A stretch of DNA of 64,000 bases. It comes from Legionella cardiaca. Lineage in GTDB: Bacteria > Pseudomonadota > Gammaproteobacteria > Legionellales > Legionellaceae. The stretch spans positions 2,355,036 through 2,419,035 of the forward strand of contig NZ_CP119078.1 in the NCBI RefSeq assembly GCF_029026145.1, in the 5' to 3' direction. A program made the translations under genes and the position numbers. Shown here one piece after another: positions 32,263 through 54,889 of the stretch (positions are counted from its first letter, which is position 1; each line of letters starts with the position of its first letter). A model generated the notes under the pieces. That model worked only from the letters and a program-made list of their open reading frames with translations, had not been told where the DNA came from and did no database searches.

Positions 32263-33933
32263 TTAGTTTGGTTGGTTTGAAGAAGTTGCTTCTGAAGCTT
32301 TTTCTTCTTTTCCTTTGCTTTTTGTATCTGATGACTTAGGTTGTTGCTGGAATATTGCTGGAATTATCACTTGTCGTCTATCTCTGTTGCTAGATTTATG
32401 TTTTGGTTTTTCTAAGCTTTCAGAGTGTTGGGTAACTTTAGCAAGTTCTCCTTGCAATCGCTCAATCTCTTTTTGCAATTTACCAATAAGTTGATCCTTA
32501 TCCGCTAATAAAGCAGTTAAGGTTGCCACATTGGGGATGCTATCGGGATCCGGGCCTAGTTCTACTAAACTTTGTGTTGGCACTTGCGAAGAAACCTCAA
32601 TGATCTCAATTTGTGCTAACCTTTTTTCTTCCTTTTTACGTGCAATCTGCTCTTCTAATTTTTTCTTTTGGATTTTACAAAACTCGCCATTCAATTTTTT
32701 TAATTTTCTTAAACGCTCAGTTCTTTCTGGTATCAAACTCAATAGCATCTTATCGGTAAGCCCTGTATGTTCCAAATGAATTGCTGTTAACGCAGGGGCT
32801 TTGCGAATGGCAATTAATAAAGGCTCTATCTGTTCCTTTGATTCTATAACGACTTTTTTCCGTAAGGTTTCTACTTTTACTTTCTGAGTCGAAAAGAAGC
32901 TTTTATTACCTGAAGTCACCACTGGCTTTCTATAGAGTTGCTGCGTACTCACATCTAAAGTAACAAGGGCTTGATTTGCCAGTAATTCAAGAACTCCCAC
33001 TTTAGTCATGTTATTATTTGCGCCATTAAAATGAGTTAATGCTTTAAATTGGGCTCTCAATGCTGTTGCATGCTTATCATTTAAGCTACAGAAATTTAAT
33101 TTTAATGTGTGAATTGTATCGTTTGGTTTCAGGTTGGCAAAATCCCAAGGTTGCTTTAATCCTGGATTATAGCCGAGATCAACAGTATGAAGTTTCATCT
33201 GTGAGAGATGAGCAAGTCCAGTCACACCAATTCCACAGCTGTCTGCGCGAAGAGTCCTTAATTTATCCAAATCCTGGATTGCTTTAACACCGTCATCACC
33301 AACACCAGCATTCAGGCTAATATTGAGCGTCTCTAAATTTTGCAAAGTAGCTACAGACTCCATGCCTTGGCTGGTAATATTATTTTTATATAAATTGAGG
33401 TAAGTGAGATTCTTTAATTTAGAATCTTTTAAATAGTGCAAAGCATCATCGGTCACACCACAATTTTTTAATGATAACTTTTTTAGCGACGCAGCTTTTA
33501 AACCTAAAGTAAATAAAACCTGGCGTGATGAAATTTGCGTATTATTATCTAAATAAAGCGCTTCTAAGTTTGCATTAAATGCGGGTCTTCTATTTAATGA
33601 ATTATTTTTTAAAGATAACGTGCGAACATGAGTTAGCTTTGCTAATTCCGTAGTAAAATCATCCGTTATTTTGCTATGATCTAAACGTAAAGTATGAATT
33701 GTTGGCAAGGTATTTAATACCGCTACTAATTCTATGATTTGCTCTTGGTTTAATTCACTTCTACTAAGATCCAGCTCGGTGATAGATTGAACACCAATAT
33801 TGGCAGAATCCTTTAAAGCAGCTAAGAATGATTTAATTTGCTTGCTAGTTTTTAAAACAAGCTTTACTTCTGTATGTGACTCATCTGTTTTTTTTATTCT
33901 GTCCAGGAAACTCTTGAGAGCAGTATTTGGCAT
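32263..33933 (-). CDS. Leucine-rich-repeat protein with C-terminal coiled coil, effector candidate
   Basis: This 556-residue protein has RNase-inhibitor-type leucine-rich repeats over residues about 40-310, with recurring LxxLxLxxNxIT units such as LTYLNLYKNNITSQG and LETLNISLNAGVGDDG. A charged, Lys/Glu-rich region with an IxKLQKEIERLQGEL coiled coil follows near residue 480, then a Lys/Ser/Glu tail (KSKGKEEKASEATSSNQ). Eukaryotic-type LRR proteins of this design are typical Dot/Icm substrates of Legionella. No full PmrA box was found upstream. GAGGA precedes the ATG. It ends at a strong terminator. Confidence 0.75.
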   Translation of the reverse strand: MPNTALKSFLDRIKKTDESHTEVKLVLKTSKQIKSFLAALKDSANIGVQSITELDLSRSELNQEQIIELVAVLNTLPTIHTLRLDHSKITDDFTTELAKLTHVRTLSLKNNSLNRRPAFNANLEALYLDNNTQISSRQVLFTLGLKAASLKKLSLKNCGVTDDALHYLKDSKLKNLTYLNLYKNNITSQGMESVATLQNLETLNISLNAGVGDDGVKAIQDLDKLRTLRADSCGIGVTGLAHLSQMKLHTVDLGYNPGLKQPWDFANLKPNDTIHTLKLNFCSLNDKHATALRAQFKALTHFNGANNNMTKVGVLELLANQALVTLDVSTQQLYRKPVVTSGNKSFFSTQKVKVETLRKKVVIESKEQIEPLLIAIRKAPALTAIHLEHTGLTDKMLLSLIPERTERLRKLKKLNGEFCKIQKKKLEEQIARKKEEKRLAQIEIIEVSSQVPTQSLVELGPDPDSIPNVATLTALLADKDQLIGKLQKEIERLQGELAKVTQHSESLEKPKHKSSNRDRRQVIIPAIFQQQPKSSDTKSKGKEEKASEATSSNQPN

Positions 33934-34154: not shown

Positions 34155-34976
34155 ATGAAAAGTCATACTGCATTAGTATCTGGATTTGCCCGTTCATTTA
34201 TATCCGGTCAACCAATTCCTGATGCAACAATAAGCGTACTTGAAAATAAAGATTTAACATTTAAAACAGATTCTGCCGGAAAATTCGGACCCATCGAATG
34301 GCCTGTTGGGGAACCAATCACCCTGATTTTTGAAAAACCGGGTTCTTTTTGGTCGGGATATAAGACAACACAAACTGCAACTTTTATAGTGCCGCCAGAA
34401 GGAATAAATGATAACAACTATCTAAAAAATATTTCCTTTCAAGTACCCTCAAATATGGCTTATAAGCTTCTTTCATTCGCCATGGGCGGCACCGAAGATT
34501 CAGAAGCTTGTCAAGTTGCGGCAACCGTTACCCCACCGAATACCACCATGGATGATATTCCACAGGGTATTGAGGGGGTTACAGTAACACTGTCACCCAA
34601 TGTCAAGCCAAGAACATTTTATTTCGGTATGTTTCCAATTATTCACAAAACAAATCCCTTTATTAGATCATTAAAAAAGACATCATTAGATGGTGGTGTT
34701 GCATTTATCAATGTCCCACCTGGTGATTATGTGATGGAAGCTACAAAGGATGATATACAATTCTCCAAGGTACTCATTAAAGCACGTAAAGGCGTCATTG
34801 TGAACGCAAGTCCACCCAACGGTCCCACCATGATAAAAGAGCCTAAGTTAAACGAAGCGGAAAAAACAAAAAGCCACTTTAGCTTTTTTAAACCCGCATT
34901 AACAATAGGGTTAGTAACTAGCGTCTGCATAGCTGGAGCGGTGCTAAATAAATCTTGCTCTTATTCTGGGCAATAA
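34155..34976 (+). CDS. Ig-like/carboxypeptidase-regulatory-type repeat protein with C-terminal membrane anchor
   Basis: This 273-residue protein has no N-terminal signal peptide. Residues about 5-95 look like a carboxypeptidase-regulatory-type beta-sandwich (SGQPIPDATISV ... TDSAGKFGPIEWP). A second such unit lies near residues 130-215 (GIEGVTVTLSP ... SLDGGVAFINVPPGDYVME). Near the C-terminus FKPALTIGLVTSVCIAGAVL is a single hydrophobic segment followed by a short Cys/Ser tail, i.e. a tail anchor. The design (two sandwiches plus tail anchor) fits a surface or host-membrane protein, but its function is unknown. ATAAGGAC precedes the ATG. Confidence 0.55.
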   Translation: MKSHTALVSGFARSFISGQPIPDATISVLENKDLTFKTDSAGKFGPIEWPVGEPITLIFEKPGSFWSGYKTTQTATFIVPPEGINDNNYLKNISFQVPSNMAYKLLSFAMGGTEDSEACQVAATVTPPNTTMDDIPQGIEGVTVTLSPNVKPRTFYFGMFPIIHKTNPFIRSLKKTSLDGGVAFINVPPGDYVMEATKDDIQFSKVLIKARKGVIVNASPPNGPTMIKEPKLNEAEKTKSHFSFFKPALTIGLVTSVCIAGAVLNKSCSYSGQ

Positions 34977-34999: not shown

Positions 35000-35030
35000 C
35001 ATGTCATTCCCGTCTGCGGGGAATGACATG
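35000..35030. repeat. REP-like palindrome / hairpin between convergent genes
   Basis: CATGTCATTCCC-gtctgcg-GGGAATGACATG, a perfect 12-bp inverted repeat. It is the best copy of the window's palindrome family and lies between convergent stops at 34976 and 35061, so it may also end both transcripts. Confidence 0.65.
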
Positions 35031-35060: not shown

Positions 35061-36311
35061 CTACTGCCTGGGTAATCGGTGATTTAATCCCCTCGGGTCC
35101 ACATGATGCGTTGAACGGTAAGGATTAATATCTAAACCACCACGTCGAGTATAGCGTCCGTAGACTGTGAGTTTTTCTGGTTTGCAGCGCGTCATGATAT
35201 CCACAAAGATTCGCTCAATACATTGCTCATGAAATTCATTATGGTTACGGAAAGAGACTATATATTTCAACAAACCTTCTCGATTAATTTGTTTACCAGT
35301 ATACATAATTTGCACACTACCCCAATCTGGCTGATTAGTTACCAGACAATTGGATTTTAATAAATCAGAATACAGGGTTTCTTCTACCTTACTCTCGCCT
35401 ACAGAAAGATAACTCGGTTCCACGAGATAAACAGAACAGGTTGTATCGATGTCATCAATACATTCACCCGTAAAAGTGGATTGGATGATAGACAATTCTT
35501 TTTCTTGCAGCGGGAGTATTCTGACTTGCACATTTCCCCCTAAACGGGCTGCTAAATCACGTTCTACTGTTTGTCTGACCACTTCTCTATCGTTAAAGCG
35601 AGAATTATTAAACGAATTAAAATACAGTTTTAATGATTTCGACTCAATTAAATACGGCGTAGCACAATCATAAATAATCTCGGCAATCGCAACCATGGGT
35701 TTACCTTTCTCGTTGAGCCAAGACACTTCGTAATGATTCCAACAATCAAAACCATAAAAAGGGAGCTGATTGGGATCAACACCAATCTCGTTACGTTTGG
35801 CTGCACGAGGAATGGCGAATAAGCGTTCTGGATTATAATGAGGGTCATAACTGGATACTTGCCCCAATTCAGACTGTTCAGGTTTGGTTTGATATTTTTT
35901 TTCCAATGTTTCATTCATACGATGAGTCTCCAAAATATTGATAATCTGTAGGGTGCTATTCCAGTTTATAGGCTGTCCTGCCTCGATTTGGCTGGCAATA
36001 TACGTCGTCAGTTCAGCTGCTTCATGGATGCGATGCGATTTTTCTTTTAAAGCTGCTGCTTGTAAACGCATCGAATCTAGCACTGCAAATTCTGGTCTCT
36101 CCAGAATTTCTTTGATGGAGGTCAATGAAAAACCTAAGAACTTCAGAGTCACTACCTGTTGTAACCGAATTAAATCATTATCGGAATAAAGACGATAACC
36201 AGCCTCTGAACGTTGTGCAGGTTTGAGTAACCCAATATCATCATAATACTGCAGAGTACGAATGCTTAAAGCCGTCATTCGACTAATATCTTTAATCCTA
36301 TGATATTTCAT
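35061..36311 (-). CDS. queF: MerR-type regulator fused to NADPH-dependent 7-cyano-7-deazaguanine reductase QueF
   Basis: Translated from the ATG at 36311 (GAGGAGGG upstream) the protein has 416 residues. Residues 1-70 are a MerR winged helix (IKDISRMTALSIRTLQYYDD ... GYRLYSDNDL), followed by a dimerisation helix and a TipA-like linker. From about residue 150 it is a full E. coli-type QueF: SLKLYFNSFN, the catalytic-Cys region FTGECIDD, LLKSNCLVTNQPDWGS, FRNHNEFHEQC and RYTRRGGLDINP. QueF reduces preQ0 to preQ1 for queuosine. An internal ATG at 35918, with GGAG nine bases upstream, would give a normal 285-residue QueF. The frame is continuous, so either a fusion or an in-frame nested gene is possible. 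Confidence 0.85.
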   Translation of the reverse strand: MKYHRIKDISRMTALSIRTLQYYDDIGLLKPAQRSEAGYRLYSDNDLIRLQQVVTLKFLGFSLTSIKEILERPEFAVLDSMRLQAAALKEKSHRIHEAAELTTYIASQIEAGQPINWNSTLQIINILETHRMNETLEKKYQTKPEQSELGQVSSYDPHYNPERLFAIPRAAKRNEIGVDPNQLPFYGFDCWNHYEVSWLNEKGKPMVAIAEIIYDCATPYLIESKSLKLYFNSFNNSRFNDREVVRQTVERDLAARLGGNVQVRILPLQEKELSIIQSTFTGECIDDIDTTCSVYLVEPSYLSVGESKVEETLYSDLLKSNCLVTNQPDWGSVQIMYTGKQINREGLLKYIVSFRNHNEFHEQCIERIFVDIMTRCKPEKLTVYGRYTRRGGLDINPYRSTHHVDPRGLNHRLPRQ

Positions 36312-36328
36312 CTTACCCTCCTCTTTGG

Positions 36329-36359
36329 AGTCTATTCTATCACGCAACGTGAGGGTCAA
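36329..36359 (-). promoter_or_regulatory. MerR-type promoter with operator dyad, controlling the merR-queF gene
   Basis: On the minus strand: TTGACC (36359-36354), a 19-bp spacer, and TAGACT (36334-36329). The spacer holds the dyad CTCACG-ttg-CGTGAT. An over-long 19-bp spacer with a centred dyad is the hallmark of MerR-activated promoters. It lies 17 bp upstream of the start codon, implying that the fused regulator controls its own gene. Confidence 0.8.
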
Positions 36360-36415: not shown

Positions 36416-37153
36416 TTAAACGGGGGCTCGATGTGCATAAACCACAATACCACCCACTTTTTGAGCATTCAGATCCTTTAATAATTGCTGGAAACCTGAA
36501 TAGAGAATGTTCCAGGGTTCTTCACCAAACTGCTGAATAACCGCTTCGCGCTTTTGTTCAAAAGACTGTAGGAGCAAAATATACCAATGGATAAATTGTT
36601 GACTAAGATCAACACTTTCTTTGAATTGCCATCCTGTTGTCCGCAACTGCTTTTTTAATTCTGGCAAGCAAATTGGGTTAAACCGAGAGGCTGTTTTTGA
36701 CCAGGGAAACGGGCTTTCAATGCGAGCCTCATTCTGCTTTGAGTAATCAAACAAAACAAGCATTCCATTGGATGCAGCAAATTGTGCTAATCGTTTTAGC
36801 GCAAGTTTTTGAGAGGCAAAACAAAAAAAAGCACTGAAGCTATAAATGCATTGAAACTTTTTATACCCAAATCCATCTGGCTGTAAAATGTCATTACATA
36901 AAAATTCAATCTCAGGATAATGCGATTGGGCATAGGCAATTAAATTTGCATCAATATCAATTCCTGTTACTTTCCCCCATCCTTGCTTTTGTACATAATG
37001 AGCAGTACCACCCAAACCACATCCTACGTCAAGAAAATGAGCATCGCTATCTTTCATTATGGGGGATAATGCAAGATCAATTGCCTCAATTTCACCAGGA
37101 TGAGCAAAATCACCTACTCTTAACATAGCAAGGATTTGTTTAGTGTATTCCAT
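36416..37153 (-). CDS. Class I SAM-dependent methyltransferase
   Basis: This 245-residue protein has a clear SAM-binding motif, FLDVGCGLGGTAHYV near residue 40, followed by VTGIDIDANLI and NDILQPDGF. The core resembles the methyltransferase-11/25 families of small-molecule methylases (SAM:phosphoethanolamine or sarcosine-type), but the substrate cannot be read. It lies directly upstream of, and in the same direction as, merR-queF, yet that gene has its own promoter. No membrane segment is seen. Confidence 0.75.
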   Translation of the reverse strand: MEYTKQILAMLRVGDFAHPGEIEAIDLALSPIMKDSDAHFLDVGCGLGGTAHYVQKQGWGKVTGIDIDANLIAYAQSHYPEIEFLCNDILQPDGFGYKKFQCIYSFSAFFCFASQKLALKRLAQFAASNGMLVLFDYSKQNEARIESPFPWSKTASRFNPICLPELKKQLRTTGWQFKESVDLSQQFIHWYILLLQSFEQKREAVIQQFGEEPWNILYSGFQQLLKDLNAQKVGGIVVYAHRAPV

Positions 37154-54598: not shown

Positions 54599-54687
54599 TG
54601 GTGCCCAGGGCCGGAGTCGAACCGGCACGGGATTTAACTCCCGAGGGATTTTAAGTCCCTTGCGTCTACCTGTTTCGCCACCTGGGC
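54599..54687 (-). tRNA. tRNA-Leu (anticodon TAA)
   Basis: Minus-strand sequence begins GCCCAGGTGG and ends CCTGGGCACCA with encoded CCA. The anticodon loop is CTTAAAA (TAA), and a long class II variable arm is present. Acceptor stem GCCCAGG/CCTGGGC is perfect. Confidence 0.97.
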
Positions 54688-54693
54688 ATTTTT

Positions 54694-54767
54694 TGGAGGC
54701 TGAGGCCGGAATCGAACCGGCGTACACGGCTTTGCAGGCCGCTGCATAACCACTCTGCCACACAGCC
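54694..54767 (-). tRNA. tRNA-Cys (anticodon GCA)
   Basis: Minus-strand sequence begins GGCTGTGTGG and ends CTCAGCCTCCA with encoded CCA. Anticodon loop CTGCAAA (GCA), T-loop GGTTCGATTCC. It lies six bases from tRNA-Leu. Confidence 0.97.
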
Positions 54768-54781
54768 GAATTAAAATTCGG

Positions 54782-54808
54782 AAAAAAAAAGCGACTCCGC
54801 GTCGCTTT
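54782..54808 (-). terminator. Intrinsic terminator between tRNA-Gly and tRNA-Cys
   Basis: On the minus strand GCGAC-gcgga-GTCGC followed by nine T residues (54790-54782). It sits between tRNA-Gly and tRNA-Cys, so only part of the transcripts from the upstream promoter would reach Cys and Leu unless processing or read-through occurs. Confidence 0.8.
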
Positions 54809-54813
54809 AATTT

Positions 54814-54889
<76 letters not shown>

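What the first reader, a model, noticed from the sequence alone, without database searches (positions are those of the whole stretch)
35061..36359. MerR regulator fused in frame to QueF, with a MerR-type promoter and a possible internal QueF start
One continuous frame encodes a MerR winged helix plus a full E. coli-type QueF. The upstream promoter has the 19-bp spacer and dyad expected of MerR control. A second ATG (35918) with GGAG could make a standalone 285-residue QueF. A transcription factor joined to a preQ0 reductase suggests sensing of preQ0/preQ1 or NADPH state, or a nested-gene arrangement.
Basis: partly seen in the sequence, partly recalled or inferred. Interest (0 to 1): 0.75.

Follow-up and report, generated by a model that had tools for sequence, protein, structure and literature searches.

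The report
Regulator-enzyme fusion with two starts
In Legionella and its relatives, the gene for a tRNA-modification enzyme (QueF) also encodes, in the same reading frame, a DNA-binding regulator that probably controls only this gene, and a conserved second start inside the gene suggests that the cell also makes the enzyme alone.

Summary
On the minus strand, one open frame (36311-35061) encodes a MerR regulator joined to a complete bimodular QueF. It is not an error: 41 of 143 Legionellaceae genomes carry the arrangement (one has a broken MerR part). All 43 distinct open fusions compared have the MerR-type promoter with 19-bp spacer and the QueF catalytic residues. The internal start is conserved too: the Glu codon in its Shine-Dalgarno is GAG in 43 of 43, against 30% elsewhere in these genes, and the ATG is 43 of 43. 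MerR seems to have been lost repeatedly, leaving queF with its internal start and sometimes the old promoter. In this genome the sites of this operator type lie before the fusion and two other MerR genes, plus one chance-level match. RefSeq starts queF of the L. adelaidensis copy at the internal ATG, so its MerR part is unannotated. The layout matches Streptomyces tipA: a long regulator and a short ligand-binding product from one autoregulated gene. Here an enzyme replaces the drug-binding domain. I propose an autoregulated trigger enzyme that senses preQ0 in its own active site. The architecture is well supported; the ligand is inferred.

The parts
36329..36359 (-). MerR-type promoter and operator: TTGACC, 19-bp spacer with dyad TCACG-TTG-CGTGA, TAGACT
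   Evidence: sequence; same element upstream of 43 of 43 distinct fusions; best hit of its type in the 3.48-Mb genome
36316..36323 (-). Shine-Dalgarno of the long product (GAGGAGGG), 4 nt before ATG 36311
   Evidence: sequence
35061..36311 (-). Full-length fusion, 416 aa: MerR regulator plus bimodular QueF (stop TAG at 35061-35063)
   Evidence: same frame in relatives
35919..36311 (-). MerR winged-helix DNA-binding part and linker, 131 codons
   Evidence: PF13411 62 bits; median dN/dS 0.072 over 96 pairs of fusions
35928..35933 (-). Internal Shine-Dalgarno TTGGAG, read as Leu-Glu in the long product
   Evidence: GAG 43 of 43, Leu codon ending in G 42 of 43; RNA less structured than the gene's median window at 43 of 43 starts
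35061..35918 (-). Internal-start product: stand-alone QueF, 285 aa, from ATG 35918
   Evidence: ATG 43 of 43; RefSeq annotates the L. adelaidensis copy as exactly this 858-bp CDS
35061..35873 (-). QueF core from SELG onward: tandem T-fold domains with Cys322, Asp329, His361, Glu362 and the second cysteine Cys364 (416-aa numbering)
   Evidence: residues 43 of 43, numbering

Best explanation
This is an autoregulated, two-product gene built like Streptomyces tipA, with the enzyme QueF in place of the drug-binding domain. From one promoter the cell makes a long MerR-QueF protein that binds its own promoter, and, by in-frame internal initiation at ATG 35918, a stand-alone QueF. The QueF domain of the long form serves as the ligand domain. 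When preQ0 accumulates, or NADPH is short, preQ0 stays bound to the active-site cysteine as the stable thioimide; this switches the MerR dimer to activate the 19-bp-spacer promoter, and more QueF is made until preQ0 is cleared. Shown by sequence: the fusion, its conservation, the promoter, the internal start signal, the intact active-site residues, purifying selection on both halves, and queF genes that kept the internal start after MerR was broken or removed. Inferred: that both proteins are made, that the long form binds this promoter, and that preQ0 is the signal. Separate likelihoods: real fusion 0.98; functional internal start 0.88; autoregulation 0.85; signal read through the QueF active site (preQ0 adduct) about 0.5.
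For: Fusion in 41 of 143 Legionellaceae genomes, one with a broken MerR part, and as the only QueF match in 27 of those 41. QueC and QueA are present in the own genome, so the enzyme role is presumably needed. Internal Glu codon GAG 43 of 43, while 11 other conserved Glu columns have GAG in 6-30 sequences and the rest of these genes 30%; it is one of three single-codon columns among 203 conserved ones. Shine-Dalgarno match of 4 or more at 43 of 43 internal starts against 38 of 214 other ATGs; RNA less structured than the gene's median window at 43 of 43. Operator before 43 of 43 fusions. In the own genome the sites of this type are before the fusion and two other MerR genes, plus one 3-mismatch match (reversed control: 3 matches) (positions). 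MerR and QueF halves diverge together, r=0.92, 0 of 2000 permutations as high; dN/dS 0.072 and 0.077. Five unfused queF genes keep the operator, starting 98-131 nt before the QueF core; L183 also keeps 45 bases identical to the MerR tail of the fusion L170, up to the ATG. MerR paralogs without QueF that align over the linker have GAG-N9-ATG there, 9 of 9. TipA precedent: two alternative starts, covalent cysteine, autoregulation (PMC7762955, passages). QueF thioimide very stable before NADPH acts (PMC5372742, passages).
Against: No expression, translation, binding or ligand data. Fused and unfused genes are interleaved on the tree, so many lineages seem to have dropped MerR and kept queF; the regulation is dispensable. 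No other queuosine gene in the own genome was found with the operator, which a wide preQ0 response might require. The 43 fusions are related, and two other columns (Lys AAA, Phe TTT) are also single-codon. The TipAS-bearing paralog of L003 does not align over the linker, so the internal start was not shown in it. Structure prediction could not be run, so it is untested whether a MerR dimer and a QueF dimer fit in one protein. The sign of regulation is unknown.
Confidence: 0.5

Rival explanations
1. Same two-product autoregulated gene, but the signal is oxidation or NADPH shortage itself: the Cys322-Cys364 pair forms a disulfide under oxidative stress and switches the MerR part, raising QueF when the enzyme is being inactivated.
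For: Both cysteines are 43 of 43; the partner cysteine is reported in 100% of 1375 bimodular QueF sequences, and the disulfide protects B. subtilis QueF from irreversible oxidation (PMC5372742, passages).
Against: By that report the pair is just as conserved in QueF at large, so it gives no special link to MerR; no stress gene was found with the operator in the own genome.
Confidence: 0.2
2. The MerR part answers to an unrelated ligand, or to none, and QueF is simply carried on an autoregulated transcript; the long form is a by-product or a bifunctional protein without sensing by QueF.
For: MerR seems to have been dropped many times without loss of queF; the operator resembles that of other MerR genes of the genome; genome neighbours differ between lineages.
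Against: Purifying selection on MerR is as strong as on QueF (dN/dS 0.072 and 0.077), and the halves diverge together; a mere by-product would be expected to decay.
Confidence: 0.22
3. Only the full-length fusion is made; the internal GGAG and ATG are chance or codon-level coincidence.
For: Leu-Glu and Met may be conserved as protein residues, and 9 MerR paralogs also have a Glu and a Met there.
Against: The Glu codon is fixed as GAG in 43 of 43 while the 11 other conserved Glu columns vary; RNA structure is low there; genes that lost MerR keep this start region; RefSeq places the L. adelaidensis start there.
Confidence: 0.07
4. Sequencing or assembly error at the junction.
For: None found.
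Against: The same junction is in 41 of 143 genomes (one has a broken MerR part upstream), and open in 21 of 80 named public loci.
Confidence: 0.01

Closest known systems
TipA class of MerR regulators (Streptomyces TipAL/TipAS, Mta, SkgA)
   Same: MerR N-terminus; C-terminal ligand domain; two in-frame starts giving a regulator and a free ligand domain; autoregulation; a cysteine that binds the ligand covalently (PMC7762955, passages). A TipAS-bearing MerR (L003) and a further MerR paralog (L002) in this genome have like operators before them.
   Different: The C-terminal domain is a metabolic enzyme, QueF, not the TipAS antibiotic-binding domain; the supposed ligand is its substrate.
Bimodular QueF (E. 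coli and Vibrio cholerae type)
   Same: Full length, 394 bits to TIGR03138, catalytic residues present.
   Different: Carries an N-terminal MerR DNA-binding part; the bimodular QueF chains of the PDB matched only residues 147-416.
Trigger enzymes such as PutA, NadR, BirA
   Same: A metabolic enzyme with a DNA-binding domain; PutA binds only the spacer between putA and putP (PMC8249747, passages).
   Different: MerR-type promoter distortion is expected here instead of simple repression, and a separate enzyme-only product appears to be made from the same gene.
preQ1 riboswitches
   Same: A known way in which bacteria sense queuosine precursors to control genes (PMC11625349, abstract start and two passages).
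   Different: No riboswitch family reached its gathering score in the window; the proposed sensor is a protein.

Membership tests
MerR family | N-terminal MerR winged-helix domain | tested here: met
   PF13411 62 bits, PF00376 51 bits, both over cut-off
MerR family | Promoter with 19-20 bp spacer and dyad (feature recalled) | tested here: met
   19 bp in the window; element in 43 of 43 fusions
MerR family | Binds and distorts its promoter | not testable with these tools
   needs experiment
TipA class | C-terminal TipAS domain PF07739 | tested here: not met
   absent; QueF_N and QueF instead
TipA class | Two in-frame start codons giving long and short products | tested here: inconclusive
   sequence signals conserved 43 of 43; translation itself not observed
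TipA class | Autoregulated promoter | tested here: inconclusive
   operator in front of its own gene; elsewhere only before two other MerR genes and at one chance-level site; binding not shown
Bimodular QueF | QueF_N and QueF domains, TIGR03138 over cut-off | tested here: met
Bimodular QueF | Catalytic Cys, Asp, His, Glu | tested here: met
   43 of 43; Cys seen against V. cholerae structures; E. coli residue numbers are recalled
Bimodular QueF | NADPH-dependent preQ0 reduction | not testable with these tools
   needs assay
Trigger enzyme | Enzyme with a DNA-binding domain in one chain | tested here: met
   by sequence:
Trigger enzyme | Substrate state changes DNA binding | not testable with these tools
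   needs experiment

The most novel reading that the evidence does not exclude
Possibly the first protein sensor of a 7-deazaguanine precursor: a TipA-type gene whose ligand domain is the enzyme itself, so that the stable preQ0 thioimide in the active site is the signal that switches on its own promoter, while an internal start supplies the bulk enzyme. Metabolic control and catalysis sit in one gene that was fused once and then dismantled many times, in the cases examined around a spared internal start.
Probability: 0.4. Interest if true: 0.8.

Novelty: new variant of a known kind. Interest (0 to 1): 0.62.

Why it matters
Queuosine precursors are known to be sensed by riboswitches; this would be a protein sensor, in a family that includes pathogens. 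It shows a TipA-type two-product gene whose effector domain is an enzyme, giving a testable route by which trigger enzymes arise. It also shows how annotation can hide a regulator: RefSeq starts queF of the L. adelaidensis copy at the internal ATG and the record's table lists no CDS over the MerR part. Paper searches found no description of the fusion (judged from listings, the hits were not opened for this; PMC7763554 and PMC11625349 were opened for passages only), in a library that lacks most subscription journals.

Tried and rejected
Artefact at the junction: rejected. MerR and QueF as a conserved operon with other genes: not supported; neighbours differ between lineages, and those of the window recur in none of the other loci clustered (31 loci in all). 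A wider regulon: one loose site (3 mismatches) beyond the three MerR promoters, while the reversed-pattern control gave three matches. Fusion outside the family: none seen among 369 genomes drawn from the class at E 1e-90, where the three MerR-covering matches (the own genome among them) were Legionellaceae; more diverged fusions could be missed. No phage record of 77 with a match covers 80% of the query; 5 of 30 plasmid records do, all Legionella. Riboswitch control: no preQ1 family in the window. Independent origins of the fusion: not excluded by the QueF tree alone (starred branches force at least 12 changes of label), but disfavoured by the shared junction, the operator and the co-divergence. 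L107 was dropped from the fusions: its long frame in GC-rich DNA shows no MerR. A contig-end fragment in G029 that runs from MerR into QueF fell below the threshold and is not counted. Metal control of queF, known from Pseudomonas CopRS (PMC7763554, passages), is only a lead. Structure prediction was never accepted, so no fold search was made.

Full report
What is there. On the minus strand an open frame of 436 codons runs from 36371 to 35061. Its first ATG lies upstream of the promoter, so the likely start is ATG 36311, with GAGGAGGG before it, giving 416 residues. The protein has MerR_1 (62 bits), QueF_N (148 bits) and QueF (99 bits), and 394 bits to the NCBIfam QueF model against a cut-off of 293. 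Among solved structures the best matches are Vibrio cholerae QueF for residues 147-416 and, for MerR, MtaN (residues 2-99), a TipA-class regulator (class). The genome is one contig of 3.48 Mb with a single QueF match. QueC and QueA are present, and family TIGR00697 (YhhQ-type transporters of queuosine precursors; role recalled) has two matches.

The fusion is real and old. Among 143 genomes of the family, 105 have a match at E 1e-100, and in 41 it runs from the MerR start (query residue 24 or less) to residue 403 or beyond; one of these, G101, has a broken MerR part. In 27 of the 41 the fusion is the only QueF match, and by my reading only three (G003, G020, G139) have an intact separate QueF; the rest have two fusions or a further frame-broken copy. 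In a sample of 369 genomes of the class the three matches covering MerR, the own genome among them, were all from this family (E 1e-90). Of 173 loci with QueF, 130 were distinct and 44 had an open frame reaching back over the MerR region; L107 was dropped because it shows no MerR, leaving 43 distinct fusions. MerR and QueF distances correlate at 0.92 over 903 pairs, with 0 of 2000 permutations as high. Median dN/dS is 0.072 for MerR and 0.077 for QueF over the 96 pairs with usable divergence. Both halves are therefore kept as proteins, and they have travelled together.

Promoter. TTGACC, 19 bp and TAGACT lie at 36359-36329 with a TCACG-TTG-CGTGA dyad, ending 17 nt before ATG 36311. The same element stands before all 43 distinct fusions, scores 34.0 to 55.6 on a matrix built from them. 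In the own genome the relaxed element is found at the fusion (0 mismatches), before the MerR paralog of L002 (1 mismatch), before the TipAS-bearing MerR of L003 (2 mismatches), and at one further place with 3 mismatches; the reversed control pattern gave three matches. The fusion has no other evident target than itself.

Internal start. Within the linker, TTG GAG (read as Leu-Glu) lies nine bases before ATG 35918. Across 43 fusions the Glu codon is GAG in 43, while the eleven other conserved Glu columns have GAG in 6 to 30 sequences and the rest of these genes in 30%. Of 203 conserved columns, two others also show one codon only (a Lys AAA and a Phe TTT). The Leu codon ends in G in 42 of 43 and has the lowest codon entropy of 32 conserved Leu columns. 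The ATG is 43 of 43. RNA around it is less structured than the median window of the same gene in 43 of 43 (mean -3.6 against -8.3 kcal/mol), and a Shine-Dalgarno match of 4 or more occurs at 43 of 43 against 38 of 214 other in-frame ATGs. The nine MerR paralogs without QueF that align over the linker, several of them close relatives of each other, have GAG, nine bases and ATG at the same place; the TipAS-bearing type of L003 does not align that far. The internal start may thus be older than the fusion. Public annotation agrees with it: in the L. adelaidensis plasmid record the queF CDS is 858 bp and begins at the internal ATG, with no CDS listed over MerR (this gene table is incomplete by design).

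Loss of MerR. On the QueF tree of 130 rows, fused and unfused genes are interleaved; starred branches force at least 12 changes of the label. Of 85 unfused or frame-broken genes with upstream DNA, seven keep a clear operator (scores 14.6 to 50.2) and L088 a weak one (6.8); the best of 85 shuffled controls scored -3.7. L156 and L173 have a frame-broken MerR before an intact queF. L183, L189, L013, L016 and L014 have lost most or all of the MerR coding DNA: the operator starts 98-131 nt before the QueF core (whose offsets omit 20 bases). L183 has 45 bases, up to the ATG, identical to the MerR tail of the fusion L170. A profile of the MerR tail and leader matches upstream of 21 of the 85 at E 0.01, L156 and L173 among them, and 0 of 85 shuffled controls. 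Upstream MerR was otherwise found only as tail remnants in L182 and L012 (tblastn). These genes kept the internal start. They are also the main evidence that the regulation can be dispensed with.

Catalysis. The Glu, Cys, Asp, His, Glu and Arg positions of the QueF active site are 43 of 43 (E. coli residue names recalled). Cys322, the nucleophile by alignment to V. cholerae QueF, and Cys364, at the place of the reported disulfide partner, are 43 of 43 (PMC5372742 passages). The same paper states that the preQ0 thioimide is very stable and that NADPH acts after it has formed.

How it probably works. The TipA paper (PMC7762955, passages) describes a gene with two start codons giving a full-length regulator and a free ligand domain, covalent ligand capture by a cysteine, and autoregulation. 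The Legionella gene has the same parts in the same order, with QueF as the ligand domain. I therefore propose that the long product senses preQ0, as the covalent adduct in its own active site, and activates its promoter, while the internal start supplies stand-alone enzyme. That both products exist, that the long one binds this promoter, and that preQ0 is the signal are inferences. An oxidation signal, or no QueF-based signal at all, remain open.

Membership. It is a MerR-family protein and a bimodular QueF by the sequence features tested. It fails the TipAS-domain criterion of the TipA class, so it works like TipA without being a member. It meets the anatomical definition of a trigger enzyme (term and PutA example from PMC8249747, passages); the substrate effect is untested.

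Novelty. Paper searches for MerR with QueF and fusion (20 papers), QueF with Legionella (5), QueF with preQ0, transcriptional regulator and domain (8, 7 listed), queuosine with Legionella and MerR (2), and the enzyme's full name with MerR family (3) gave nothing that by title and start of abstract describes this fusion. The papers were not opened for this; PMC7763554 and PMC11625349 were opened for passages on queF only. Most subscription papers are not held.

Noticed in passing
L095-L098, L199:5001-6247: A frame-broken MerR-QueF copy with the same broken frame and neighbours is held by contigs of four named Legionella species; similar two-piece matches lie on plasmids of about 144-150 kb in L. 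anisa, L. sainthelensi and L. longbeachae records, in L. anisa among acetyltransferase, phosphotransferase and DNA adenine methylase genes on a plasmid typed conjugative.
   Followed up: partly
L002:973-1938 (-): A MerR paralog of this genome whose C-terminal domain has no Pfam match; it and eight relatives share the GAG-N9-ATG at the linker, so it may be another two-product regulator.
   Followed up: partly
L089:2908-4469: An unfused queF with a separate MerR-type frame just downstream, about 35% identical to the fusion's MerR.
   Followed up: no
L122:1470-1521 (-): In a genome without the fusion, a perfect operator followed shortly by AATATTTTGGAGACT, as at the fusion's internal start, but no queF: possibly the scar of a wholly deleted gene.
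   Followed up: partly
window 35000-35030: A hairpin (CATGTCATTCCC...GGGAATGACATG) between the convergent ends of the fusion and the gene at 34155-34976, perhaps a shared terminator or a small repeat.
   Followed up: no
window 32263-33933 (-): A 556-residue leucine-rich-repeat protein.
   Followed up: no
window 36416-37153 (-): A methyltransferase-domain gene ends 104 bases before the fusion's start on the same strand; it did not recur at the other fusion loci clustered.
   Followed up: partly
window 54602-54889 (-): Three tRNA genes in a row.
   Followed up: no
L034: The named fusion locus closest to the window (79% identity) lies on a contig titled Bacteroidetes, probably a misbinned Legionellaceae contig.
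   Followed up: no
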